A DNA stretch of 54,634 nucleotides from Candidatus Cloacimonadota bacterium (GTDB lineage: Bacteria > Cloacimonadota > Cloacimonadia > Cloacimonadales > TCS61). The DNA lies in contig JAIPGP010000013.1 in assembly GCA_021735645.1 (NCBI GenBank), positions 1 through 54,634 of the forward strand, given 5' to 3'. A program made the position numbers and the translations under genes. The stretch's first letter is position 1. The number at the start of each line of letters is the position of its first letter. Positions 15,188-45,055 of this stretch are shown in pieces. A model generated the notes under the pieces. That model did no database searches, was not told the origin of the DNA, and saw nothing but the letters and a program-made list of their open reading frames with translations.

Positions 15188-18100
15188 CTATTTCATGAGA
15201 ATCATCTTTCTGGATTGGACTGTGTTACCAGCTTTTAAATAAGAGAAATATACTCCGCTGCTTACAGCTTCATCGTTATTATCTCTGCCGTTCCAGACCA
15301 GCGAATGTTGACCTGCGGTCATATAACTATCCACCAGGTTACGCACTAATTGTCCTTTCAGGTTATAAACTTTCAGCTCCACTTCCATATTTTCGGGTAT
15401 CCGGAAATAAATCTCAGTTTCAGGATTGAAGGGATTGGGATAATTTCCTGTCAATTCCATAACCCCGCAGGCAGGTTCATCATCTTCTCCCACAATTTGC
15501 ACATCGAGCACGACATTAATGATTTTTGTATCCCAGCTTTCAGAGGTAATCACAATATCAGAGGTGTAGATACCTTGTGCGATATCATGCGAATCAAAGT
15601 TAAGGGTTATTTCCTGTGACTCTTCAGGTTCAAGATTTCCCTCTAACGTATCCAGATCAAGCCAGGGCGTAGTATCATTTAGATTGAGAAAGAAGTTTAC
15701 CGGCAAATCACCGATATTTGTCAAAGTGAAAACCTGACTACCGGTTTCCTCAGGTTCCATCTCAAAATGAATGCTGTCCGGATCAACTGTAAAAGTATTT
15801 ACCATGTATGCGATTAAAGGCAGTGTTCTATTTCCGCTATAATCTACGCAAGTGATATAAGCTTCTAAATGAAATTGATAAAAATCAGGAACATCTTCCG
15901 CTACTTCCAGGCAAAAAGCGTTTTCCAGTGTTCCCAGACCATTAGCTGGAATTTCCAGGCAGCCTCCTGCATTATCAATCACAGTAACATAAGGGTCTTC
16001 AATAGAAAGTTCCACTTCAATATATTGGGCAGTTTCTCCTCCTATATTCTCCAGAACCAGACTTATATAGGCAGTTTCTCCAGCTTCAATAAAATTATCA
16101 TCACCTGCCAGGGCATAATAATCACTAACTTCCAGAAAAGGTGCATCCACAGGTATCGGCGGTGTAGTAAATAAGAGTGCAGTTTCATTTTCCAGGACTT
16201 TGCAGGCTGCCGGAAATGTGTTATTGAAGCTATATTGCAACCCGATCTGAGAATTGCTGTTCTCCAATCCAATCGTACAATATTGCCCGTGGTTGCTTGG
16301 ATAACTTCCTACGTTATTATTAGTTACATCCAGATACTGCATTTTGATCATACTATCTCCCGTTGTCACGGGATAATGTCTGGCGTCATAGAGAAGCACT
16401 TCGAAATACTCCAGGGCAGCGGTATCTCCATTTGTTATGTTTGACCACTCTATTACATAATAATGAAGCTCAGCATTATAATACCAGAGAATATCTCCGG
16501 AACTGATGCTCAAATCATCCCAGAAAACCGCGATCATGGGACTTGGTCCTTGAGGTCCGGGAATCTGATAGTTCATGAAACTTCCGCTTTCATGATAGCC
16601 GGGAGCAATCCAGCCATTAGTGCATACACAGATTTCATTATATTCTTCACCATAAAAAGAGAAACTGAAGTCATCAGGTAAATCCAGGTTTGCATAATTT
16701 CCGGTTCCGGCTCCTGTACCTGTTCCTGTTGCCCCTTCCCAGATGATGGATGTACCTGCACCACCATAATCCGGATCAATTTCTATCCAGTCATAATCCG
16801 GACAAAGTTCATATCCCGCATCGTCATCATCATAGCACCAGTAACCATATTCATCCGGTCCATAGGGATCGGTAACTTCCGGGTCACCGATGGGAATATT
16901 CATCGTTACAAAACTATCATATCCATCCGCATCAGTGAGATGAATATTAAAGGGAATATATGTTCCCGGCAGAACCAGTTCACTGGCTGTGATTGTGAAA
17001 CTATTATCAACATTGCTGGAGGATCCGCCGGCAGCAATTGTGCCAAAATCACCCTGATTATCCTCTATAATTATCCGGTGGCTATTGCAGATTAATTGTC
17101 CTTCCACTCCTGCCGCATCCAGTTCTCCATTGTTTCCCAGAGTGAAATAAATTTCTTCTGTTTCACCCGGATCTATTATTCCATCCCCGGAAACCGTATA
17201 ATCGCTGGCAAATAGACTAGCTCCTTGCACCGGAATATACTGCCAGGTGATCCATTCATTATCATCTGCATCAGTAATCGTGAATTCCATCAAAAGTACT
17301 ACATCCCCCTGAATAGCGGGAGCAAATTCCAGTTCAAACCCGGATTCACCCGTTATTATTTCCCCAATTGCAATATCTCCAAAATCCACAATTGGCGTTA
17401 ATATTGTAACATCAGAATTGCTGCATGCCATGCTAACATTCACTTCGTGGACATCTGCATTTCCTCTATTTGCCAGGGTAAGCATTAGCTCCCCTGTCTC
17501 ACCCGGGTTTACAATACCATTGCCATTTCCATCTAAATCAATAAATTCTCGTGATTGAATTTCCATGAACTGATCAAGAGGATCTTTTCTGAGAGCCTCT
17601 CTGAAAGGGATGTGATTATGTTTGGTAGCTGTAAGAGTATAATTACCATCAGGAGCATGAGCCACATCCAGAATAACAGAACCATTTTCGTCACAAAATT
17701 CCGTTGCAGTATATCCTCCATCTACTTCATATAAGGTTACCCAGGCTCCTTCAGCAGCATTTCCGGTGGAATCAAAAACTGTCACTTCAAAAAAATTAGC
17801 ACCATCAGGGATCACATCATCACAGGCAACAGAAAGAATCTGAGGAATGCCAGTCCATAATTCCAGGCTGGCATCTCCCATCAAGGTATTCCAGTGAGAA
17901 AAGATATTCACATAACAGCCGGGATTTTGAGGAAAGCTCAGCCAGAGGTGATACTTACCCTGTAACACAGCTCCTCCCATAGTATAGATATTATCGCGAA
18001 ATATACCTCCCCAGACCCCTAAAGCAATAGCATTGTTAAAAGGTGTATGCGTTCCAACTGTGGCTGTACCCATAGCCCCGATACCGCCACTTGGCAGAGA

Positions 18101-19549
18101 TACTGTACCTGATTGATAGAAACCCTCCGCGGTACCAAGCCCATAATTCCAGTTATTTGAGCCACAGGTTGGTATCACGGCAAATGGCATCATACCGCCA
18201 TTTGTTGTAGCGCCGGCGGTCCAGTTTGAAGTGCCAAAATAACCACGGTAGCCAAAGTATGATACTCCCAGATCAATGGCATTATTCATCTGATAAGGAA
18301 ATGGGCCTAAATAAACCTCAAAAAAATTATCATCATCAGAGAAATTACCGGGATAATCCAGCATCATTTCCTTAAATGCTTTCATCACGGCAATGCAGGA
18401 ATATCCCGAATAAGAGGAGTCACCTGTCAATAATGCCCGTTGATACCATTCCAGATGCTCCAGATAAGGGCTTTTTTCATATGAAATTGCTTTACTGATA
18501 ACTGTTTGCAATACTGCTATCGTGTTAAAAGTCATTCTTCCTAATATCACGTCACCCAGAACATCATTTCCTTCTAATTGACTGTAAGGATGATCTCCTT
18601 CACCGCCGCTGGTAAACCAGGTAGCTATAGCAAAAGTGCCATCACCGTCTCCCATAATATTTACATATTCCGGTGGGTTTTCCCAGGTATCATAAGCATC
18701 CTGGATATAATCTTTGATCGAGGTATTCGTGATCCCCGTTTCTGCCGTAGTTGCCACAACAACATTGAACCCTTTCTGCTTTTTCCATTCCGTAAGATAT
18801 GCCAGATTTTCCAGCACGTCATCATTATCATTGCAGATAAATAATATTGTCGGTACCTGGTATTCGTCCCTCAGCGGCAATTGATCATAATTTAAAGAAT
18901 TCGCTCGAAACATTTCTGTAAATGCCCGAGAACGCTTGCGGTGGCTGTATCTGGCATTGATCCCACCACTGCCATCCACGGTTATCCTGACTCTGATACT
19001 GCTGCACACCCTTAATGTGCGGCTACCAGCATCATATTGAAAAGGACTGAAGGTAACCGGCAGCATTCGGAAATCTCGCATTATTGCGGGTTCTCCTGAC
19101 CAGACGGTTTCTGCCGGATATACTCCTCTTCCCTGATAAAATTCTGTATTTATAGTAAAATTATCTCTTGGTTCTTCACTTTCATACTGCAAGGCTTCCT
19201 GCGGATAAATCAGGATTTCCGGATATTCTCTCTGCTCATAACTGATTATTTCAATGGTTGCATTACCTTCATCGGGTATGATCAAAGCCTTTGTAAACAC
19301 CGGCAGATCAGGCATGCCAATATCCAGCAATTCTCCTGCTTCCGGATGGCTGATCACCGAATAAATCTCTCCATCATATTTCTTTTCTCCCAGGTCAAAG
19401 CCATCAAGAGTGAAAACTATTTCTGCTTGACCACGCGTCTGCTGCTCACAGGTGTATAACCCGGACTGCTGTTCGGGGTTCACCTCTATCCATCGCCCCA
19501 TTAAACTCAAACCTGCCAATAATAAAATGAACAATAATGAAATCTTCAT
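15188..19549 (-). CDS. Gingipain-type C25 cysteine peptidase with sorting domain
   Basis: A 1453-residue secreted protease. A signal peptide is followed by a gingipain-like propeptide (about 45-225). The caspase-fold C25 domain starts near VPTILFICND (232). The probable catalytic pair is His320 (EGDHPYSQ) and Cys462 (AVIPTCGSNN), at the spacing expected for the family. After the catalytic domain come Ig/CARDB-like segments with repeated GNGIVNPGETGE and GDGIIDPGETEE motifs, then an FlgD-like sorting domain from about 1366 (NYPNPFNPETE). Peptidases of this family cleave after basic residues or, in type IX systems, process secreted cargo. Either role is possible here. Confidence 0.92.
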   Translation of the reverse strand: MKISLLFILLLAGLSLMGRWIEVNPEQQSGLYTCEQQTRGQAEIVFTLDGFDLGEKKYDGEIYSVISHPEAGELLDIGMPDLPVFTKALIIPDEGNATIEIISYEQREYPEILIYPQEALQYESEEPRDNFTINTEFYQGRGVYPAETVWSGEPAIMRDFRMLPVTFSPFQYDAGSRTLRVCSSIRVRITVDGSGGINARYSHRKRSRAFTEMFRANSLNYDQLPLRDEYQVPTILFICNDNDDVLENLAYLTEWKKQKGFNVVVATTAETGITNTSIKDYIQDAYDTWENPPEYVNIMGDGDGTFAIATWFTSGGEGDHPYSQLEGNDVLGDVILGRMTFNTIAVLQTVISKAISYEKSPYLEHLEWYQRALLTGDSSYSGYSCIAVMKAFKEMMLDYPGNFSDDDNFFEVYLGPFPYQMNNAIDLGVSYFGYRGYFGTSNWTAGATTNGGMMPFAVIPTCGSNNWNYGLGTAEGFYQSGTVSLPSGGIGAMGTATVGTHTPFNNAIALGVWGGIFRDNIYTMGGAVLQGKYHLWLSFPQNPGCYVNIFSHWNTLMGDASLELWTGIPQILSVACDDVIPDGANFFEVTVFDSTGNAAEGAWVTLYEVDGGYTATEFCDENGSVILDVAHAPDGNYTLTATKHNHIPFREALRKDPLDQFMEIQSREFIDLDGNGNGIVNPGETGELMLTLANRGNADVHEVNVSMACSNSDVTILTPIVDFGDIAIGEIITGESGFELEFAPAIQGDVVLLMEFTITDADDNEWITWQYIPVQGASLFASDYTVSGDGIIDPGETEEIYFTLGNNGELDAAGVEGQLICNSHRIIIEDNQGDFGTIAAGGSSSNVDNSFTITASELVLPGTYIPFNIHLTDADGYDSFVTMNIPIGDPEVTDPYGPDEYGYWCYDDDDAGYELCPDYDWIEIDPDYGGAGTSIIWEGATGTGTGAGTGNYANLDLPDDFSFSFYGEEYNEICVCTNGWIAPGYHESGSFMNYQIPGPQGPSPMIAVFWDDLSISSGDILWYYNAELHYYVIEWSNITNGDTAALEYFEVLLYDARHYPVTTGDSMIKMQYLDVTNNNVGSYPSNHGQYCTIGLENSNSQIGLQYSFNNTFPAACKVLENETALLFTTPPIPVDAPFLEVSDYYALAGDDNFIEAGETAYISLVLENIGGETAQYIEVELSIEDPYVTVIDNAGGCLEIPANGLGTLENAFCLEVAEDVPDFYQFHLEAYITCVDYSGNRTLPLIAYMVNTFTVDPDSIHFEMEPEETGSQVFTLTNIGDLPVNFFLNLNDTTPWLDLDTLEGNLEPEESQEITLNFDSHDIAQGIYTSDIVITSESWDTKIINVVLDVQIVGEDDEPACGVMELTGNYPNPFNPETEIYFRIPENMEVELKVYNLKGQLVRNLVDSYMTAGQHSLVWNGRDNNDEAVSSGVYFSYLKAGNTVQSRKMILMK

Positions 19550-20093: not shown

Positions 20094-21530
20094 ATGGAAA
20101 TTGTGATTGGGAAATTTTTGACAATATTTAAAGAGATATCAGCCATACCCCGGTGTTCGAAGCATGAGGAAGCAATCTGCAAATGGTTATGTGACTGGGC
20201 AGAAGAGCATAAATTTGCCTGCAAGCAGGATAAGGCAGGTAATATTGTAATAACAGTTCCGGCAACTCCTGGTTATGAAGACAGTCCAATAGTAGTCTTG
20301 CAGGGGCATACAGACATGGTCTGTGAGAAGTTGCCTGAAAGTGATCATGATTTCGCAACAGATGCAATCCGCCCGATACGGCAGGGTGACTGGCTGGTAG
20401 CAGACAAAACAACCCTGGGAGCAGATAATGGTGTGGCAATTGCTTTAGCACTGATGCTGGTGGAAGAGCAAAAGCCTCATCCGCAATTAGAATTGCTGTT
20501 TACAGTTGACGAAGAGACCGGCTTAACGGGAGCGAATCAGTTAGGCAAAGATTTTCTACAGGGTAAGATACTACTGAATCTGGATTCTGAAGGTGAAGGT
20601 AAGTTCACGATCGGCTGTGCAGGTGGAAAACATACAATAATCCATTTACCACTGGAATATGATCTGGCAGCAGAGAGCAGCAATTTTTTGAAATTAAAAG
20701 TTCATGGTTTACTGGGTGGACATTCTGGTGTAGATATCAATAAAAATCACGGTTCTGCCTTGAAGCTTCTTGCCCGGTCATTGTATCTTCTAAAAGAGGA
20801 ATTCAGTTTCAACATCGCAGATATTCTGGGTGGTACGGCTCATAATGCCATATCACGGGATGCCGAGTGCACTATTTGCATATATCCTGATGATCAGGCA
20901 GCAATTGAAGAATTTGTGGAGACCATCAAGCTTGCTTTCAGACATGAATATACCGGCATCGAACCGGGTCTGGAAATCACAATCGAGCCCGAAGATTCAA
21001 TAAAAGACATTTTAACAGAGGAAAGTACGCTGCAGGTGATCAATCTTCTGATGGCACTTCCGCATGGTGTGTCCGCTATGACTCTCAGTATACCGGATTT
21101 GGTGGAAACCTCCTGCAATCTGGCCAAAGTAGAGATTGAATCTGACAGTCTGCGAGTATTAATAAGCATAAGAAGTTCGGTAAGCAGCAGATTAGAGGGT
21201 TTATGCGGCAGAATAATATCAATCGGGGATTTAGCTGGGGCTGAAGTAGAAGAAAGTGACGGTTATCCTGCCTGGGAGCCTGATACAAATTCTGATTTGT
21301 TGAAACTGTGCACCAGCTGCTACCAGAAGCTGTTCGGGATAGAGCCGGATGTATTGATCATCCACGCTGGGCTGGAATGCGGCTTGATAGGAGAAAAGTA
21401 TCCGGACATGGAGATGATTTCCTTTAGACCAACTATCCAGAATGCCCATTCTCCACGTGAACGTCTGAACTTGCCGTCTTTTCAGCGAACCTGGGAATTT
21501 CTGGCAATTCTTCTGGAAGAAATGCGTTGA
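20094..21530 (+). CDS. pepD: Aminoacyl-histidine dipeptidase PepD (M20 family)
   Basis: A 478-residue cytosolic metallodipeptidase that cleaves Xaa-His and other dipeptides. Metal-site residues of the M20 fold are visible: His72 and Asp74 in VLQGHTDMVCEK, Asp111 in LGADNGVA, and Glu140/Glu141 in VDEETGLTGA. The C-terminal SFRPTIQNAHSPRERL matches the conserved final His motif of the family. Length is normal. AAGGG lies 11 bases upstream of the ATG. The next gene begins six bases after its stop, so they form an operon. It probably serves amino acid fermentation. Confidence 0.95.
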   Translation: MEIVIGKFLTIFKEISAIPRCSKHEEAICKWLCDWAEEHKFACKQDKAGNIVITVPATPGYEDSPIVVLQGHTDMVCEKLPESDHDFATDAIRPIRQGDWLVADKTTLGADNGVAIALALMLVEEQKPHPQLELLFTVDEETGLTGANQLGKDFLQGKILLNLDSEGEGKFTIGCAGGKHTIIHLPLEYDLAAESSNFLKLKVHGLLGGHSGVDINKNHGSALKLLARSLYLLKEEFSFNIADILGGTAHNAISRDAECTICIYPDDQAAIEEFVETIKLAFRHEYTGIEPGLEITIEPEDSIKDILTEESTLQVINLLMALPHGVSAMTLSIPDLVETSCNLAKVEIESDSLRVLISIRSSVSSRLEGLCGRIISIGDLAGAEVEESDGYPAWEPDTNSDLLKLCTSCYQKLFGIEPDVLIIHAGLECGLIGEKYPDMEMISFRPTIQNAHSPRERLNLPSFQRTWEFLAILLEEMR

Positions 21531-21536
21531 TCACTA

Positions 21537-23489
21537 ATGGTTCATAAGCTGATAAATACGACCCTGAAAATACCCAATTCTCTGGATTATTTACCGCTTT
21601 GTGCAACTTTTATAGAAAACAATGCCCAATTGATAGGCTTCATACCCGAAGAAGTGAGAGCCATTTCACTGGCAACCGAAGAGGCTATTTCCAATATTAT
21701 CCTGCACGCTTATGCTCCAGGTCAATATGACATCATTGAAATAAACTGCTGGCAGACACCTTTAGGTATCGAGATCATCATCAAAGAAAAGGGAATGCCC
21801 TTTGATTCCAGTCAGTTTCCAGAATATGACCCCGAAAGCCTGGATACTGAGTCTCAGGGCTTAGGGTTATATCTGATCAAGCAGACAGTTGATGAAGTGA
21901 TATTTACGAATCGGGGTAGTGAAGGCAGAGAAACCCATTTAGTGAAATATATCACTCAATGTCCGTTAGAAGATATTTTTCCTGCAGACCAGTCGGAAGA
22001 GACCAGCAAATCTGTAGAGCATCACAAGACTAATTTAGCGATCAGGCGATTAGGAGAAGGCGAAGCAATCGAGGTATCTCGGGCAATTTATCGGATATAT
22101 GGATATAATTATTTTAACGAGCATGCATATTATCCCGAGCGGATAGAAAGGCTAAATCTGCAAGGGCAGCTTGATACAGCAGTGGCGATCACAGAAAAAG
22201 GCATCTTTGCCGGCACCTGTGCAATCTATCGAGAGGATATCTCCGCTGAAATTGGAGAATTAGAGCAGGCAGTGATGCTACCGGAATATCGGGGCAATCA
22301 TGGCATGGAGCAATTGTTGCAATTTCTACGGGAAATAGCCCGGGGTAAAAATCTGCTGGGTTTATTTGCCAAATCAGAGACCAGTAATATATACGCCCAG
22401 CGTGCTTTGCACCGGCTGGAGGCACATGATTGTGCTTTATTGCTGGGATTTGCGGGTAATCTTGTGCTGAATAGTGATAAAGGTCAGAACCAAACCCAGC
22501 GAGAAAGCGTTCTGCTCAGTTATTCTCCCCTGCAGCAGGTAGAGAAAAAGAGTATATATGTACCGGAACATCATCAGGATATGGTTCACAAAATTTATAA
22601 AAATATTGGTTATGAGAGAGAGTATCTTCTTCCCAAGTGGGGAAAAAAGCCCTGGCATGATTCGTCGGAGCTTGATATCAAATATTTTTATAATACCGCA
22701 ACAGCAGTTATAAAAATATCCCGCTTTGGCAAAGATATAATCTCTAAACTGAAAGAAGCTAAGAAAGAAGTGAAGCTGAAGCAATTTGCCGTTATTTATT
22801 TATATTTGAACCTGGAGAATCCCTTTACAGTTACTTATTTTGAGAAAATAGAGAATCTGGATTTCTTTTTTGCCGGGATCCTGCCAAATGACCCTATCGG
22901 CGATGCAGTTATCCTGCAATATTTGAATAATATTGAGATCAATATCACTAATCTGGATTTGTATTCTGATACAGCCCAGGCACTGGCAGAATACATTCAG
23001 CAATGTAGAGTGAAAGACCCTCTGCGGATGCTGATAGACGCTGGAGAGAGTAATAAGCTGGAATTTAAATCAACCCTGCGCTGGAATCTGCGAGAAGGCA
23101 AGAAAGATATTTATATAGAGTATGCTGTCCTCAAATCAATTGCTGCATTTCTAAATTGTGAAGGCGGTACTTTGCTGGTAGGCATTCATGATGATGGCAG
23201 TGTGCAGGGAATAGAAATAGATAATTTTGCCAGTGAGGACAAATATCTGCTGCACTTTTCCAACCTGATTCACCATAATATCGGACTTGAAAACTCACAG
23301 TCAGTACATTATAGTTTAATGGAGCTGGAAGGGAAGAAGATATTGAAAGTGGATTGTGAGCCTTGCAGTAAACCGATTTTTATAACAATGGACGGCAAGG
23401 AGAAGTTTTATATCCGATCAGGTCCAGCCAGTAAAGGTCTGGCAATTTCAGAAGCAGTAAGTTATATTGCAGAACACTTCCAGGGATAA
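21537..23489 (+). CDS. Fusion of RsbW-like ATPase, GNAT-like and AlbA_2 domains
   Basis: 650 residues with three recognisable parts. Residues about 1-140 look like an RsbW/SpoIIAB-type GHKL kinase: N-box ATEEAISNIILHAY and G-box SQGLGLYLIKQTVDE. Residues about 165-330 resemble an acetyltransferase fold (IGELEQAVMLPEYRGNHGMEQLL). Residues about 495-650 form a Schlafen/AlbA_2 domain (ESNKLEFKSTLRWN, then FLNCEGGTLLVGIHDDG). AlbA_2 domains occur in transcription regulators and nucleic-acid-binding proteins. A stress-signalling or anti-sigma role is inferred. It lies directly behind pepD and 26 bases before the sirtuin gene. No STAS or sigma partner is visible in the window. Confidence 0.8.
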   Translation: MVHKLINTTLKIPNSLDYLPLCATFIENNAQLIGFIPEEVRAISLATEEAISNIILHAYAPGQYDIIEINCWQTPLGIEIIIKEKGMPFDSSQFPEYDPESLDTESQGLGLYLIKQTVDEVIFTNRGSEGRETHLVKYITQCPLEDIFPADQSEETSKSVEHHKTNLAIRRLGEGEAIEVSRAIYRIYGYNYFNEHAYYPERIERLNLQGQLDTAVAITEKGIFAGTCAIYREDISAEIGELEQAVMLPEYRGNHGMEQLLQFLREIARGKNLLGLFAKSETSNIYAQRALHRLEAHDCALLLGFAGNLVLNSDKGQNQTQRESVLLSYSPLQQVEKKSIYVPEHHQDMVHKIYKNIGYEREYLLPKWGKKPWHDSSELDIKYFYNTATAVIKISRFGKDIISKLKEAKKEVKLKQFAVIYLYLNLENPFTVTYFEKIENLDFFFAGILPNDPIGDAVILQYLNNIEINITNLDLYSDTAQALAEYIQQCRVKDPLRMLIDAGESNKLEFKSTLRWNLREGKKDIYIEYAVLKSIAAFLNCEGGTLLVGIHDDGSVQGIEIDNFASEDKYLLHFSNLIHHNIGLENSQSVHYSLMELEGKKILKVDCEPCSKPIFITMDGKEKFYIRSGPASKGLAISEAVSYIAEHFQG

Positions 23490-23515: not shown

Positions 23516-24256
23516 ATGTATGAGATTACTAAAGCGCTGGAAATTATCCGTAATGCCCGTCATCTGATTGCTTTTTGCGGAGCAGGAATATCTGTAGAAA
23601 GCGGTATACCTCCTTTTCGCGGGAAAGGTGGTTTGTGGAACAGATATGATGCAAGCTGCCTTGATCTGGACACTTATCTGAGACATCCGGAACGGTCCTG
23701 GCTCCTGATCAAGGAGATATTCTATGATTTTTTTGGTCAGGCAAAACCCAATCCGGCTCATTATGCTTTGGCAGAGCTGGAAAAGAATGGTATCCTGAAA
23801 ACCATAATCACGCAGAATATTGATAATCTTCATCAGGAAGCCGGCAGCCGAAGTATCGTGGAATTTCATGGTAATTCGCACACTTTTATCTGTACTGCCT
23901 GTTCCACAAAATATTATCTAAATGAACTAAAACTCAAGAACACACCACCTGAATGCCCAGCCTGTAAAGGTCTTTTGAAACCTGACTTCATTTTTTTTGG
24001 TGAAATGATACCTGCCCAAGCCAGAGAACGTGCTTTTAGTGAAGCAGAACTTGCTGATGCCATGCTGGTGATTGGCACAACCGGTGAAGTGATGCCGGCA
24101 AGTATGATACCATATATTGCCAGACAACAGGGAGCAAAAATTATTGAGATAAATCCGGGCTATTCTGCCTATCAAAACAGTGTGTCCCATATTCATATCT
24201 GCCAGCCAGCCGGAGTAGCCCTTCCACTTATCACAAAAGGTCTATTTGGTGAGTAA
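23516..24256 (+). CDS. cobB: NAD-dependent deacylase, sirtuin family
   Basis: A 246-residue Sir2 protein that removes acyl groups from lysines using NAD. The NAD-binding GAGIS is at 22-26, the QNID motif at 100-103 and the catalytic base His118 in FHGNSH. The zinc ligands are Cys126, Cys129, Cys147 and Cys150. The ribosome site AGGAAA lies ahead of ATG 23516. The following transporter gene begins inside its last codons, so the two are translationally coupled. The placement behind a protein with an acetyltransferase-like domain suggests linked acyl-lysine control, which is inference. Confidence 0.93.
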   Translation: MYEITKALEIIRNARHLIAFCGAGISVESGIPPFRGKGGLWNRYDASCLDLDTYLRHPERSWLLIKEIFYDFFGQAKPNPAHYALAELEKNGILKTIITQNIDNLHQEAGSRSIVEFHGNSHTFICTACSTKYYLNELKLKNTPPECPACKGLLKPDFIFFGEMIPAQARERAFSEAELADAMLVIGTTGEVMPASMIPYIARQQGAKIIEINPGYSAYQNSVSHIHICQPAGVALPLITKGLFGE

Positions 24257-25187
24257 CCAAAAAAAGGCTTATATCTATGGCTTGATTGCAATATTTTTCT
24301 GGTCAACGGTAGCTTCCGCCTTTAAAATTGCTCTGCAATATAATTCTCCGCCTGCCATGCTGCTGCTTGCCAGCTTTTTTTCTCTGCTGGTTCTGATAAT
24401 TATAGCTGCCAGCCAAAACAAGATTTCTCTGCTCTGGCAATCTTCTCCGCATCTGCTCCGGCAAGCCTCGCTACTTGGCGTCCTGAACCCATTTCTTTAC
24501 TATCTTATCCTGCTGCAAGCCTATAATTTGCTGCCAGCTCAAATAGCCCAACCTTTAAATTATACCTGGGCTATTATGGTTGCTCTGCTATCTATCTTTA
24601 TCCAGAAACAGAAGCTGCGTTATTTTGATATCGTTGCCCTGCTGCTGTGTTATAGCGGAGCTGCGGTTATTTCCAGTGGAGGAGGTAAACTTGGTGAGAT
24701 CAATCATACAGGGGTTTTTCTGGCTTTATTTTCCTCAATTGTCTGGGCATTTTACTGGATTTATAATGCTGGTATACGCCTTGATCCACTCATAAAACTG
24801 ATTGCTAATTTCTTCTGCGGAAGCCTGCTGATATTGGGCTATTGTCTAATAACTGGGGATCTGCCGATATTCAGTGTTAAGAGTATTTTGTCTGCACTAT
24901 ATCTGGGTATTTTTGAGATGGGTCTCACATTTGTGTTCTGGCTAAAAGCAATGGAGCTAACAGAAAAGACGGTTAGAATATCAAACTTGATCTTCTTATC
25001 TCCATTTCTATCATTTATATTTATCACACTCACACTAAAAGAGCCCATTGCCTGGACATCTATCGCCGGACTAATATTCATCACAAGCGGAATATTATTT
25101 CAGCACAGCAAAGCCGGAAAATTAAAAAAATTAGAGCAAAATCAGTTTTCTAACTCCTCGTCTTCTTCATCGTCAACGTCATCGTAA
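24249..25187 (+). CDS. EamA/DMT-family transporter
   Basis: About 312 residues with ten hydrophobic helices in two EamA repeats, the usual drug/metabolite transporter layout. The start is GTG 24249 or TTG 24246, both overlapping the sirtuin stop, with AAAGG just upstream. The tail is a low-complexity serine run (NSSSSSSSTSS). It is encoded by the complement of the acidic tail of the converging gene, overlapping it by 46 bases. The substrate is unknown; relatives export amino acids or other metabolites. Confidence 0.85.
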   Translation: MSNQKKAYIYGLIAIFFWSTVASAFKIALQYNSPPAMLLLASFFSLLVLIIIAASQNKISLLWQSSPHLLRQASLLGVLNPFLYYLILLQAYNLLPAQIAQPLNYTWAIMVALLSIFIQKQKLRYFDIVALLLCYSGAAVISSGGGKLGEINHTGVFLALFSSIVWAFYWIYNAGIRLDPLIKLIANFFCGSLLILGYCLITGDLPIFSVKSILSALYLGIFEMGLTFVFWLKAMELTEKTVRISNLIFLSPFLSFIFITLTLKEPIAWTSIAGLIFITSGILFQHSKAGKLKKLEQNQFSNSSSSSSSTSS

Positions 25188-25444
25188 TCTTCATCGTCAT
25201 CATCTTCATATTCATCATCCAGCATCCAATCAGGACAAAACAGAGAATTTTCTTTCTTATCCCAGCCGTCCACATTTTCCAGTCCGAATCTATCCAGCAT
25301 ATCTTCTTCCCAGATCGAATATCGTACATCATCATTGTAAATATCATAAACCAGTACCGGGTTAGTAAACTTCCGAAGTGAATACGGATTGCCTATCAGT
25401 TCAAAGAACTCCTTAATTCGCTTGCGATCACGTTCTGCTTTCAT
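25142..25444 (-). CDS. Small protein with very acidic tail, unknown
   Basis: A 100-residue cytosolic protein. The first 70 residues are mixed (KRIKEFFELIGNPYSLRKF) and the last 30 are almost only Asp and Glu. AGGAGA lies about eight bases before the ATG. Its 3' end overlaps the converging transporter gene by 46 bases. No family is recognised; acidic tails of this kind occur in nucleic-acid mimics, chaperones and metal binders. Confidence 0.7.
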   Translation of the reverse strand: MKAERDRKRIKEFFELIGNPYSLRKFTNPVLVYDIYNDDVRYSIWEEDMLDRFGLENVDGWDKKENSLFCPDWMLDDEYEDDDDEDYDDVDDEEDEELEN

Positions 25445-42047: not shown

Positions 42048-43566
42048 TGAAGAACTAAGCCCTTTAGTAGAAAAGCGGTTAAGTTGGATAATAGAGCACA
42101 GTACAGATGTATTTTTTATTCACACAATAGATGATGAGATAATTTATATAAGCCCGCAGGTAGTCAATATACTGGGTTGCACCCAGGCAGAAGCACTGGT
42201 GAAATGGACAGAATTTGCAACCGATCATCCGATTAATCAAAAGGCTGTGATAAATACCCGGAAAGCAATTGAGACAGGTGAGGCACAACCTGCTTATGAA
42301 ATGGAATTGATCAGAGCAGACGGTAATAAGGTCTGGGTAGAAGTGAGAGAGACCCCGATTATCGAAAATGGGAAAGTAAATCTGATCACAGGTTCATTGA
42401 CAGATATCAGCCAGCGAAAGCGGTCGGAACTTATCCAGAGAACACTTTTTAATATTTCAAATGCCATGATAGAGACAGGGGATTTGCCGGAACTATTTCA
42501 AAGGCTGCATCAGCTTTTAAATGAAGTAGTGAAAGTTAGTGAAATCTATATTGCACTCATGGATCACAAAGAGCAAAAAATCCAATTTCCTTATTTCGAG
42601 AGCAAATATAATATCAAGCCAGAACCAGTGAATTTTGCAGAATCACGAGGGCTTACGCAGCTTGTACTGGAAAAAGGGGAGGCGATTCTGGTTGATAGTA
42701 CAGAGATCATGCAATTGCAAGCCAGAGGCTGGGTAAATTTACAGGGAGAAATACCGAGGCAATGGTTAGGAATCCCGCTGAAAACCGGGAAAGATGTGAT
42801 AGGAGTGCTCTCCGTGCAAAGCTATGAGGAATCGAACAGTTTTTCCGCTGATGATGTGGAATTACTCACCTTTGTCTCAGAAGAAATAGCTCTTGCCATC
42901 AGGAGTAAACAGTCAGAAAAACAGCTTAAAAGCAATTTGCGTGAAAAGGAGATATTGCTGCGTGAGCTTTACCACCGCACTCGCAACAATATGGAGGTGA
43001 TTGCCTCTATGCTGCAAATGAAAGCCGATCTATCCCAGGATGAGGAATTACGCGCCAGCTTCCGGGAAATAGTAGATAAGATATTTTCCATGTCACTGGT
43101 TCATAAAAAGCTCTATGAAGGGCAAAACCTTTCCCAGATCGAGCTTAAGGAATATATAGAGGATTTCACCGGGCACCTGCTGGATAAATTCGGCATGAGC
43201 AACAGGGTTAGTTTTGAGCTTAGTCTGGAAGAAGTAAAAGTGTCTATTGATTCGGCCATCCCGCTGGGACTTGTGATAGCAGAGCTGATAACCAATTCTT
43301 TCAAGCATGCTTTTGCAAAACAGGACTTTGGGAAAATCTGTATAAAATTACATCGAGACAGAAACCGATTAATCGTAGTTGAATATGGCGATAATGGACA
43401 AGGTATCGAGCCAGGGATCAATCTGAGGACTCTTGATTCGATGGGAGTGAACAGTGTGTTTGCCATCGTGAAATATCAGTTAAGGGGCAGTATATCATAT
43501 CATGTTTCGGAAGGTTTAAAATGGAACATAATCTTTAATGATGATTACCGGGAAACCAGAATATAA
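42037..43566 (+). CDS. PAS-GAF sensor histidine kinase (HisKA_2 type)
   Basis: 509 residues, no membrane segment, so a cytosolic sensor. A PAS domain (about 20-130) is followed by a GAF domain (about 145-290). The HisKA_2 region contains the phospho-acceptor His313 in RELYHRTRNNMEV. The ATPase domain shows AELITNSFKHAF (N-box) and YGDNGQGIEP (G1). HisKA_2 kinases often signal to single receivers, matching the gene just upstream. The second kinase follows 13 bases later. Confidence 0.93.
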   Translation: MKNDEELSPLVEKRLSWIIEHSTDVFFIHTIDDEIIYISPQVVNILGCTQAEALVKWTEFATDHPINQKAVINTRKAIETGEAQPAYEMELIRADGNKVWVEVRETPIIENGKVNLITGSLTDISQRKRSELIQRTLFNISNAMIETGDLPELFQRLHQLLNEVVKVSEIYIALMDHKEQKIQFPYFESKYNIKPEPVNFAESRGLTQLVLEKGEAILVDSTEIMQLQARGWVNLQGEIPRQWLGIPLKTGKDVIGVLSVQSYEESNSFSADDVELLTFVSEEIALAIRSKQSEKQLKSNLREKEILLRELYHRTRNNMEVIASMLQMKADLSQDEELRASFREIVDKIFSMSLVHKKLYEGQNLSQIELKEYIEDFTGHLLDKFGMSNRVSFELSLEEVKVSIDSAIPLGLVIAELITNSFKHAFAKQDFGKICIKLHRDRNRLIVVEYGDNGQGIEPGINLRTLDSMGVNSVFAIVKYQLRGSISYHVSEGLKWNIIFNDDYRETRI

Positions 43567-43579
43567 CCAGGAAAATAAA

Positions 43580-45055
43580 ATGGAAGACCAGGAAAAGAAA
43601 ACTTTGTTAGGTGAAATAGCAAAGCTTAAGAAGAAAGTAACAGAATTGGAAGCTGTAAAAGAATCTTTTGAACATCAGATTAGTGCTCTGAGTGAAAGTG
43701 AAGAGATGTTCAGGGTGCTTTCGGAAAACAGCCTTTTAGCTATGATGATTTATCAAAATGATATCTGGGTTTATGCCAATACAGCAGCCAGCCAAATTTC
43801 CGGTTTCTCCAATCAAGAGTTGATGGGAATGCCTTTCTGGAAATTTGTTCATCCGGATTTTGTGGAACAAGTGAAATTAATAGGGAGCAAGCGTCAGAAA
43901 ACTGAAGAAACGGTAAAAAGCTATGAATTCAAAATAATCACCAAAAAAGGTAAGGAAAAGTGGGTATGGTTAAGTGGCGCAAGCACTTTGTATCATGGCA
44001 AACCGGCTGGCATTGTATCAGTGCAGGATGTTTCAGCCCGGAAATCCGTAGAGCAGAAGTTAAGAGAAAGTGAAGAAAGGTTTAAATTTTTGACGCAGGC
44101 AACATTTGAAGGAATTGTGGTTCATAAAAACGGGATTGTACTTGATGCTAATGATGCTTTTATAAAAATGTGTGGTTATACGAGAAAAGAAGCGATAGGT
44201 AAATATCTGTTAGATTATATTCCCGGAATGAAGGATCGCGCCAGGATATTGATCAATATAGTAAAAACTTCCACTGAACCGTATATAGTACAGGCAAGAC
44301 GTGAAGATGGGAGTATGTTTATGGCAGAACTGGAAGCGAAAGGTGTGAAGCAGATGGGAAAATCTGTTCGAATTGTGGCAGTGCGTGATGTTACAGAAAG
44401 GCTGAAGTCAGAGGATGAACTGAGAATTGCTCATAAAAAGCTAAGAGTGATGAATTCCATACTCAGGCACGATATAGCCAATGATCTGGCAGTAATTGAT
44501 AGTGCCTTGGAATTATACAAGGAAACGTCTAAACCGGGAATGCTGGATGAAATTGAAAAAAGAGTGAAAAGGTGTATTGATACTATCAAAAAACAGCATA
44601 AGCAGGAATTAAACATCATTAAAGCTGACATTATTCCTGAACTGGTGATCAATGATCTGATAGCTGAGATAGTTCAGAGTCATCCGGAAATAAAAATTAC
44701 CGTCTCAGGCGCAAAGAACGTGGCAGTTTATGCTGATGATGGATAACATTCCGTATTTGAGAATTTTATCAGTAATTCGCAGCGTCATGCTCAGGCAGAT
44801 CAGATAGAAATAGATATCGCTAAGCAGGGAGAAGAATGTCAGATACGTTTTTCTGATAATGGTTCAGGGATTCCAGATGAGATAAAAAAACATGTTTTTG
44901 ATGAAGGGTTTCATTACGGCGATTCCGGTCATACCGGGTTAGGATTGCATATTGTGAAATCACTGATTGATAGTTATAAGGGAAAGATCAGTATAGAAAA
45001 TAATCAGCCTCAGGGAACTGTGTTTATAATCAGTCTGGCATGTAAATCAACTTAA
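43580..45055 (+). pseudogene. PAS-PAS histidine kinase cut by an in-frame TAA
   Basis: The frame from MEDQEKKTLLGEI (ATG 43580, AGGA upstream) contains a coiled coil, two PAS domains (about 45-170 and 170-295), the His-box RHDIANDLAV and the start of the ATPase domain. It stops at TAA 44744-44746 after VYADDG. The same frame continues for 102 codons with the expected N-box (FENFISNSQRHA), G1 (DNGSGIP) and G2 (GHTGLGLHIV), ending at TAA 45053-45055. One base change would restore a 491-residue kinase. Without the ATPase half it cannot autophosphorylate. Its natural end overlaps the converging nim stop by three bases. Confidence 0.85.

What the first reader, a model, noticed from the sequence alone, without database searches (positions are those of the whole stretch)
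21537..23489. Unusual fusion: RsbW-like kinase, acetyltransferase-like and AlbA_2 domains in one protein
The GHKL N-box and G-box, a GNAT-like middle and a C-terminal Schlafen/AlbA_2 domain can be read in one 650-residue frame. It joins a phosphorylation-type switch to a nucleic-acid-associated domain, and is followed by a sirtuin. It may link protein phosphorylation, acylation and transcription in a new signalling protein.
Basis: partly seen in the sequence, partly recalled or inferred. Interest (0 to 1): 0.6.

Follow-up and report, generated by a model that had tools for sequence, protein, structure and literature searches.

The report
Partner-switch kinase fused to Schlafen domain
One bacterial protein joins a stress-signalling kinase domain, an enzyme-like double acetyltransferase-type module and a Schlafen-type (RNA-cutting or nucleic-acid-binding) domain; the first two parts are an existing, little-studied signalling protein found in several bacterial groups, and the Schlafen tail is a rare addition seen here in only two genomes.

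Summary
A homologue in another genus is 64% identical over the full length, with similar conservation in every domain, so the fusion is real and maintained. The RsbW-GNAT part is an older family: full-length in 19 of 125 Cloacimonadota genomes and in a few genomes outside that class. In four Cloacimonadota loci it lies beside SpoIIE phosphatase, RsbW and STAS genes, and a GNAT-only homologue has the same neighbours on a Thiodictyon plasmid. The AlbA_2 tail is on only two members; close relatives of that domain sit on restriction and membrane proteins. It keeps the four residues of the Schlafen RNase site. The GNAT acetyl-CoA loop is damaged in both fused proteins, and the sirtuin neighbour is not conserved, so the acylation idea fails. 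Best reading: a partner-switching kinase whose output (GNAT-type module plus Schlafen effector) is fused in cis instead of being a sigma factor. Activity and partner STAS are unproven.

The parts
21537..23489 (+). fusion gene, 650 aa: RsbW-type kinase + GNAT + GNAT-like + AlbA_2
21570..21944 (+). RsbW/SpoIIAB-type HATPase (residues 12-136): N-box E48/E49 and N53, G boxes with G86, G108, G110; Glu84 here where all 23 aligned core relatives have Asp
22029..22454 (+). GNAT domain (residues about 165-306); conserved YGYxY region kept, motif A damaged (R252-G-N-H255)
22494..23012 (+). second conserved domain (residues about 320-492) with the secondary-structure order of a GNAT core; hallmark FFFAGIxP...LQYLNN; no Pfam match
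   Evidence: (profile match to the first GNAT not significant, E 0.17)
23046..23435 (+). Schlafen AlbA_2 domain (residues 504-633); E504, E509, K511, D552 match the rat SLFN13 site E205, E210, K212, D248
20094..21530 (+). upstream PepD-type dipeptidase, 6 bp before the fusion; same order in the other fused genome
23516..24256 (+). downstream sirtuin (CobB-like deacylase); linkage to the fusion not conserved

Best explanation
The protein is a partner-switching kinase with its own output attached. SHOWN BY SEQUENCE OR MODEL: an RsbW-type ATPase with the kinase motifs, a tandem GNAT-type module, and a single AlbA_2 domain with an intact set of Schlafen active-site residues; the RsbW-GNAT core occurs in relatives beside a sensor phosphatase (Cache-HAMP-SpoIIE), a small RsbW and a STAS antagonist. 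INFERRED: the ATPase domain binds and phosphorylates a STAS protein encoded elsewhere in the genome; when a SpoIIE-type phosphatase dephosphorylates that STAS, its binding changes the conformation of the fused protein. The GNAT module, whose acetyl-CoA loop is degraded here but whose YGYxY pocket is kept, acts as a ligand-binding or coupling element more likely than as an enzyme. The AlbA_2 domain is the effector, probably an endoribonuclease that works as a dimer, held off or on by the kinase domain. In short, a sigma-factor-free partner switch that gates a Schlafen domain in cis.
For: Three domains above Pfam cut-offs; model and Foldseek support for the RsbW and GNAT folds; full-length homologue 64% identical with 70/66/65/64% in the four domains and 20% in the first linker, as expected if every domain is under constraint; SpoIIE+RsbW+STAS next to the unfused core in L056, L058, L063, L075, with the NMT1 solute-binding gene too in three of them, and the same set beside a GNAT-only homologue in a gammaproteobacterium; E/E/K/D Schlafen residues conserved in all aligned relatives of this AlbA_2 subtype; the host genome has STAS and SpoIIE genes, including a REC-SpoIIE/STAS pair with no RsbW-type gene beside it.
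Against: No STAS, SpoIIE or sigma-factor gene was recognised beside the fusion itself in either genome (limited set of probes; sigma factors not searched by profile). The REC-SpoIIE/STAS pair is also present in two congeners that lack the fusion, so co-occurrence does not single it out. Glu84 replaces the Asp of the ATP-binding G1 motif in this copy. Some Schlafens with partly conserved site residues show no nuclease activity (PMC8789055). Characterised Schlafen cores have two lobes; here there is one domain. No biochemical data.
Confidence: 0.42

Rival explanations
1. The AlbA_2 domain is a nucleic-acid-binding or targeting element, not a nuclease; the protein is a regulator that binds DNA or RNA when the partner switch flips.
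For: AlbA_2 is often described as a DNA-binding Schlafen domain, for example in Argonaute-linked proteins (PMC6299218); this subtype sits at the C-terminus of DUF262 and N6-methylase proteins, where an accessory role is as likely as catalysis.
Against: The E/E/K/D set is conserved in this subtype, which simple binding would not require.
Confidence: 0.25
2. It is an anti-phage or self-limiting effector: a Schlafen RNase under a GHKL-type sensor, in a lineage-specific accessory gene.
For: Relatives of the AlbA_2 domain are on restriction-type proteins; Schlafen RNases fused to a minimal histidine-kinase domain occur in BREX loci (PMC12839542); the gene is patchy and is missing in two congeners with a scar-like remnant.
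Against: The locus is a housekeeping-type setting (dipeptidase, sirtuin, transporter), there is no PADLOC match, and the core's relatives are tied to partner-switch sensors, not defence genes.
Confidence: 0.18
3. One reading: an active acyltransferase whose protein acylation is reversed by the neighbouring sirtuin.
For: The GNAT fold is clear; the sirtuin is 26 bp downstream; in some relatives the core lies beside an AMP-forming acyl-CoA ligase.
Against: Acetyl-CoA loop glycine lost in both fused proteins; sirtuin adjacency not shared with the other fused genome, while congeners keep dipeptidase-sirtuin without the fusion.
Confidence: 0.08
4. Sequencing or assembly artefact, or a decaying chance fusion.
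For: Only two genomes carry it.
Against: Two independent assemblies, 64% identity over 648 residues, no stops, similar conservation of all domains.
Confidence: 0.01

Closest known systems
RsbW / SpoIIAB anti-sigma kinases (Bacillus SigB and SigF partner switches)
   Same: HATPase_c_2 fold, N-box and G-boxes; best PDB matches by sequence and structure; relatives lie beside SpoIIE and STAS genes
   Different: Known ones are single-domain and hold a sigma factor; this has about 510 further residues of built-in output and no adjacent STAS or recognised sigma gene
Unfused RsbW-GNAT-GNAT core family (about 500 aa; no single Pfam or NCBIfam name)
   Same: Same first 490 residues at 26-37% identity, same conserved YGYxY and FFFAGIxP motifs
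   Different: Lacks the AlbA_2 tail; most keep the GNAT acetyl-CoA loop
Thiodictyon plasmid GNAT-GNAT protein WP_100922862.1 (L071)
   Same: Tandem GNAT-type module beside ATP-binding, SpoIIE, NMT1 and STAS genes
   Different: Kinase domain is a separate gene; no AlbA_2; 21-23% identity
Schlafen RNases (SLFN13 and relatives)
   Same: AlbA_2 domain with E, E, K, D site residues (PMC5862951, PMC8789055)
   Different: Single AlbA_2 domain, no second lobe; activity unknown
BREX-linked Schlafen fused to a minimal histidine kinase and wHTH (PMC12839542)
   Same: Schlafen plus GHKL-type ATPase in one protein
   Different: By that paper's description the kinase is C-terminal and a wHTH is present; here the ATPase is N-terminal and RsbW-like, with a GNAT module and no wHTH match
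DUF262/GmrSD-AlbA_2 proteins (L069; Sinorhizobium pSymA WQO97353.1)
   Same: Same AlbA_2 subtype at the C-terminus (37-41% identity)
   Different: N-terminal part is a restriction-type domain

Membership tests
RsbW/SpoIIAB partner-switch kinase | HATPase_c_2 fold above curated cut-off | tested here: met
   (68.3 vs 27.4 bits); Foldseek TM to RsbW 0.88 by target length
RsbW/SpoIIAB partner-switch kinase | N-box Glu/Asn and G-box glycines | tested here: met
   E48/E49, N53, G86, G108, G110 present; E84 replaces Asp
RsbW/SpoIIAB partner-switch kinase | NCBIfam equivalog score for RsbW or SpoIIAB | tested here: not met
   51.8 vs 145; 38.9 vs 155; 36.1 vs 135 bits: a relative, not an orthologue
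RsbW/SpoIIAB partner-switch kinase | Gene beside STAS antagonist or phosphatase | tested here: inconclusive
   absent beside the fusion; present beside the unfused core in L056, L058, L063, L075
RsbW/SpoIIAB partner-switch kinase | Phosphorylates STAS; binds a sigma factor | not testable with these tools
   needs biochemistry
GNAT acetyltransferase | GNAT fold | tested here: met
GNAT acetyltransferase | Motif A acetyl-CoA loop R/Q-x-x-G-x-G/A | tested here: not met
   R252-G-N-H-G-M in the window protein and R-G-N-H-C-M in L002; R-G-x-G in 18 of 22 unfused relatives
Schlafen AlbA_2 | PF04326 above curated cut-off | tested here: met
   69.1 vs 25.3 bits
Schlafen RNase | Carboxylate triad E205/E210/D248 plus K212 (rat SLFN13) | tested here: met
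   E504, E509, D552, K511 by alignment; geometry in the model not measured
Schlafen RNase | Two-lobed pseudo-dimer core | tested here: not met
   one AlbA_2 match only; homodimer not tested
Schlafen RNase | RNA cleavage | not testable with these tools
   needs biochemistry
Known anti-phage defence system | Match to a PADLOC model | tested here: not met
   no match

The most novel reading that the evidence does not exclude
A partner switch without a sigma factor: STAS phosphorylation state, read by an RsbW domain, directly gates a Schlafen-type RNase in the same polypeptide, so that an environmental signal is turned into RNA cleavage (translation control) rather than a change of promoter choice, with a degenerate GNAT module as a metabolite input.
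Probability: 0.22. Interest if true: 0.72.

Novelty: new variant of a known kind. Interest (0 to 1): 0.42.

Why it matters
Partner-switch modules (SpoIIE/RsbW/STAS) occur in many bacteria outside the Bacillus SigB setting, and their outputs there are often unknown (general knowledge). The RsbW-GNAT core described here, found beyond one phylum and next to such modules, is a concrete candidate output, and the fused version suggests which effector it may control. It would also connect bacterial Schlafen domains with a defined phospho-signalling input, which is testable with a few purified proteins.

Tried and rejected
Artefact or chance fusion: rejected (second genome, similar conservation of all domains). 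Sirtuin as a functional partner: rejected as conserved linkage. Second GNAT proven by sequence: profile-profile comparison of residues 163-310 with 320-490 gave E 0.17, and Pfam gave no match for residues 321-494, so it rests on predicted secondary structure; Foldseek hits for the tandem model cover only about 177 columns, that is about one GNAT domain. Orphan REC-SpoIIE/STAS pair as the dedicated partner: found in both fused genomes but also in two congeners without the fusion, so not supported by co-occurrence. Defence model library: no match. The genome-contig scan with the single protein found only the one close relative and could not be repeated with a profile; a sample of 387 genomes reaching beyond the phylum was used instead. 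Paper searches for a described RsbW-GNAT family found none in the held library, which lacks most subscription papers and preprints.

Full report
CHECK OF THE OBSERVATION. The frame at 21537-23489 (+) encodes 650 aa from ATG to TAA. Pfam gives HATPase_c_2 at 12-136 (E 8e-19), Acetyltransf_1 at 200-293 (E 2e-5) and SLFN_AlbA_2 at 504-633 (E 6e-19), all above gathering scores. By sequence the N-terminus matches PDB chains of RsbW and SpoIIAB. AlphaFold2 with a 29-row alignment gave mean pLDDT 83 and pTM 0.70. Foldseek returned RsbV/RsbW structures first and then SpoIIAB and many GNATs; a second model of residues 160-490 (pLDDT 87, pTM 0.86) again returned GNATs. AlbA_2 rests on the sequence match, which is strong.

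Residues about 320-492 are a further conserved block (FFFAGIxP...LQYLNN). Its predicted elements (strands 378-384 and 389-396, helix 401-414, strand 419-425, helix 430-439, strands 444-452 and 455-463) follow the order of a GNAT core, but sequence comparison with the first GNAT is not significant (E 0.17), so I call it GNAT-like. About 110 residues of it recur at the N-terminus of a TPR histidine kinase in another Cloacimonadota genome (L135; hmmsearch E 4e-25), so it can exist as a separate mobile domain.

REALITY OF THE FUSION. A second genome of the same family but another genus (G015; MAG contig JAIPGO010000028.1, Candidatus Cloacimonadota) has a 651-aa homologue, 64% identical over residues 1-648. 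Identity is 70% (ATPase), 66% (GNAT), 65% (GNAT-like) and 64% (AlbA_2), but 20% in the linker 140-164. All domains have been kept under similar constraint. The upstream dipeptidase gene is the same in both.

DISTRIBUTION. Among 125 Cloacimonadota genomes, 19 (the two fused ones included) hold a full-length RsbW-GNAT-GNAT core, some with two or three copies; unfused proteins are about 490-550 aa, and the AlbA_2 tail is on two only. A wider sample of 387 genomes found full-length cores of about 480-497 aa in three genomes of other groups (G220, G203 with two copies, G208), a core broken by a stop codon in G127, and GNAT-only versions in G147. In the core tree the two fused proteins form a third deep branch beside two groups of unfused proteins.

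GENOMIC CONTEXT. Four unfused members lie within a few kb of SpoIIE phosphatase, a small RsbW and a STAS protein, three of them also with an NMT1-type solute-binding protein (L056, L058, L063, L075; Pfam checks). They belong to both unfused groups. A gammaproteobacterial plasmid carries a GNAT-GNAT protein without ATPase beside ATP-binding, SpoIIE, NMT1 and STAS genes. Several of these phosphatases have Cache-HAMP-SpoIIE architecture. Other members lie beside an AMP-forming acyl-CoA ligase (L059, L060, L061, L084, L085), and in G147 a GNAT-only copy has both a ligase and a SpoIIE gene nearby. This ties the core to partner switching in distant bacteria. The fusion itself has none of these beside it; its genome has STAS and SpoIIE genes elsewhere.

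ALBA_2. The Schlafen13 nuclease site is E205, E210, D248 (PMC5862951) with K212 nearby (PMC8789055). The window protein has E504, E509, K511 (same spacing) and D552, the last placed by alignment with PDB Schlafens. All five other aligned members of this subtype in the phylum keep E, E, K and D. They sit behind a DUF262/GmrSD restriction domain (L069), on a protein beside a type I specificity gene (L068), on two related proteins, one with hydrophobic segments (L066, L067), and on an unknown (L070). On plasmids the subtype is at the C-terminus of DUF262 and N6-methylase proteins. So this looks like a mobile C-terminal domain from a partly restriction-associated repertoire that was joined to a signalling core. 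Schlafens that keep only part of the site can be inactive (PMC8789055), so activity is a prediction.

GNAT ACTIVITY. Motif A reads R-G-N-H in both fused proteins; 18 of 22 unfused rows have R-G-x-G. The YGYxY region is kept. I therefore favour a binding or coupling role in the fused proteins.

SIRTUIN AND SCAR. In G015 the sirtuin is on another contig. In two congeners the dipeptidase and the sirtuin are neighbours with a 99-100 bp gap and no fusion. In G001 that gap holds TTCCAGGGATAA, identical to the last 12 bases of the fusion gene, 27 bases before the sirtuin start (26 in the window). A 12-mer shared with any part of the gene appeared in 340 of 20,000 shuffled gaps, and the matching position makes chance less likely still; this suggests deletion from an ancestral dipeptidase-fusion-sirtuin order. 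The scar is short, so I treat it as suggestive.

PARTNER. Both fused genomes share an operon of REC-SpoIIE phosphatase and STAS with no RsbW-type gene beside it, an attractive partner for an orphan kinase. But G001 and G002, which lack the fusion, have it too, so the profile does not prove it.

VERDICT. A real, conserved, rare architecture: a new variant of a known kind (partner-switch kinase with a fused output).

Noticed in passing
window 43538-45028 (+): A PAS-PAS sensor kinase frame ends at 44746 while a HATPase match is open at 44759-45028 just behind it: a histidine kinase apparently split by a frameshift or stop.
   Followed up: no
L135:4018-6549: TPR-HisKA-HATPase histidine kinase with, at its N-terminus, about 110 residues of the GNAT-like second domain of the fusion core (E 4e-25): a domain without a Pfam match that moves between signalling proteins.
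   Followed up: partly
L059, L060, L061, L084, L085: Unfused RsbW-GNAT-GNAT genes followed by an AMP-forming acyl-CoA ligase, suggesting an acyl-CoA ligand or substrate.
   Followed up: partly
L066:1-1872, L067:1578-3185: Proteins beside tRNA-nucleotidyltransferase-like genes (by eye) that end in the same AlbA_2 subtype; L067 has two hydrophobic segments that look like membrane helices flanking an unidentified, possibly sensor, region.
   Followed up: no
window 24246-25187 (+) and 25142-25444 (-): Convergent overlap in which the Ser-rich tail of a DMT transporter and the acidic tail of an opposite-strand ORF are read from the same low-complexity DNA.
   Followed up: no
window 15188-19549 (-): 1453-aa secreted-type protein with a C-terminal sorting-like sequence, resembling a C25-type peptidase by eye.
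   Followed up: no
L063:1966-2643 and L052:9268-9939: A GPP34-domain gene precedes the core in L063, and a GPP34 relative also lies about 3.4 kb downstream of the fusion in G015.
   Followed up: partly
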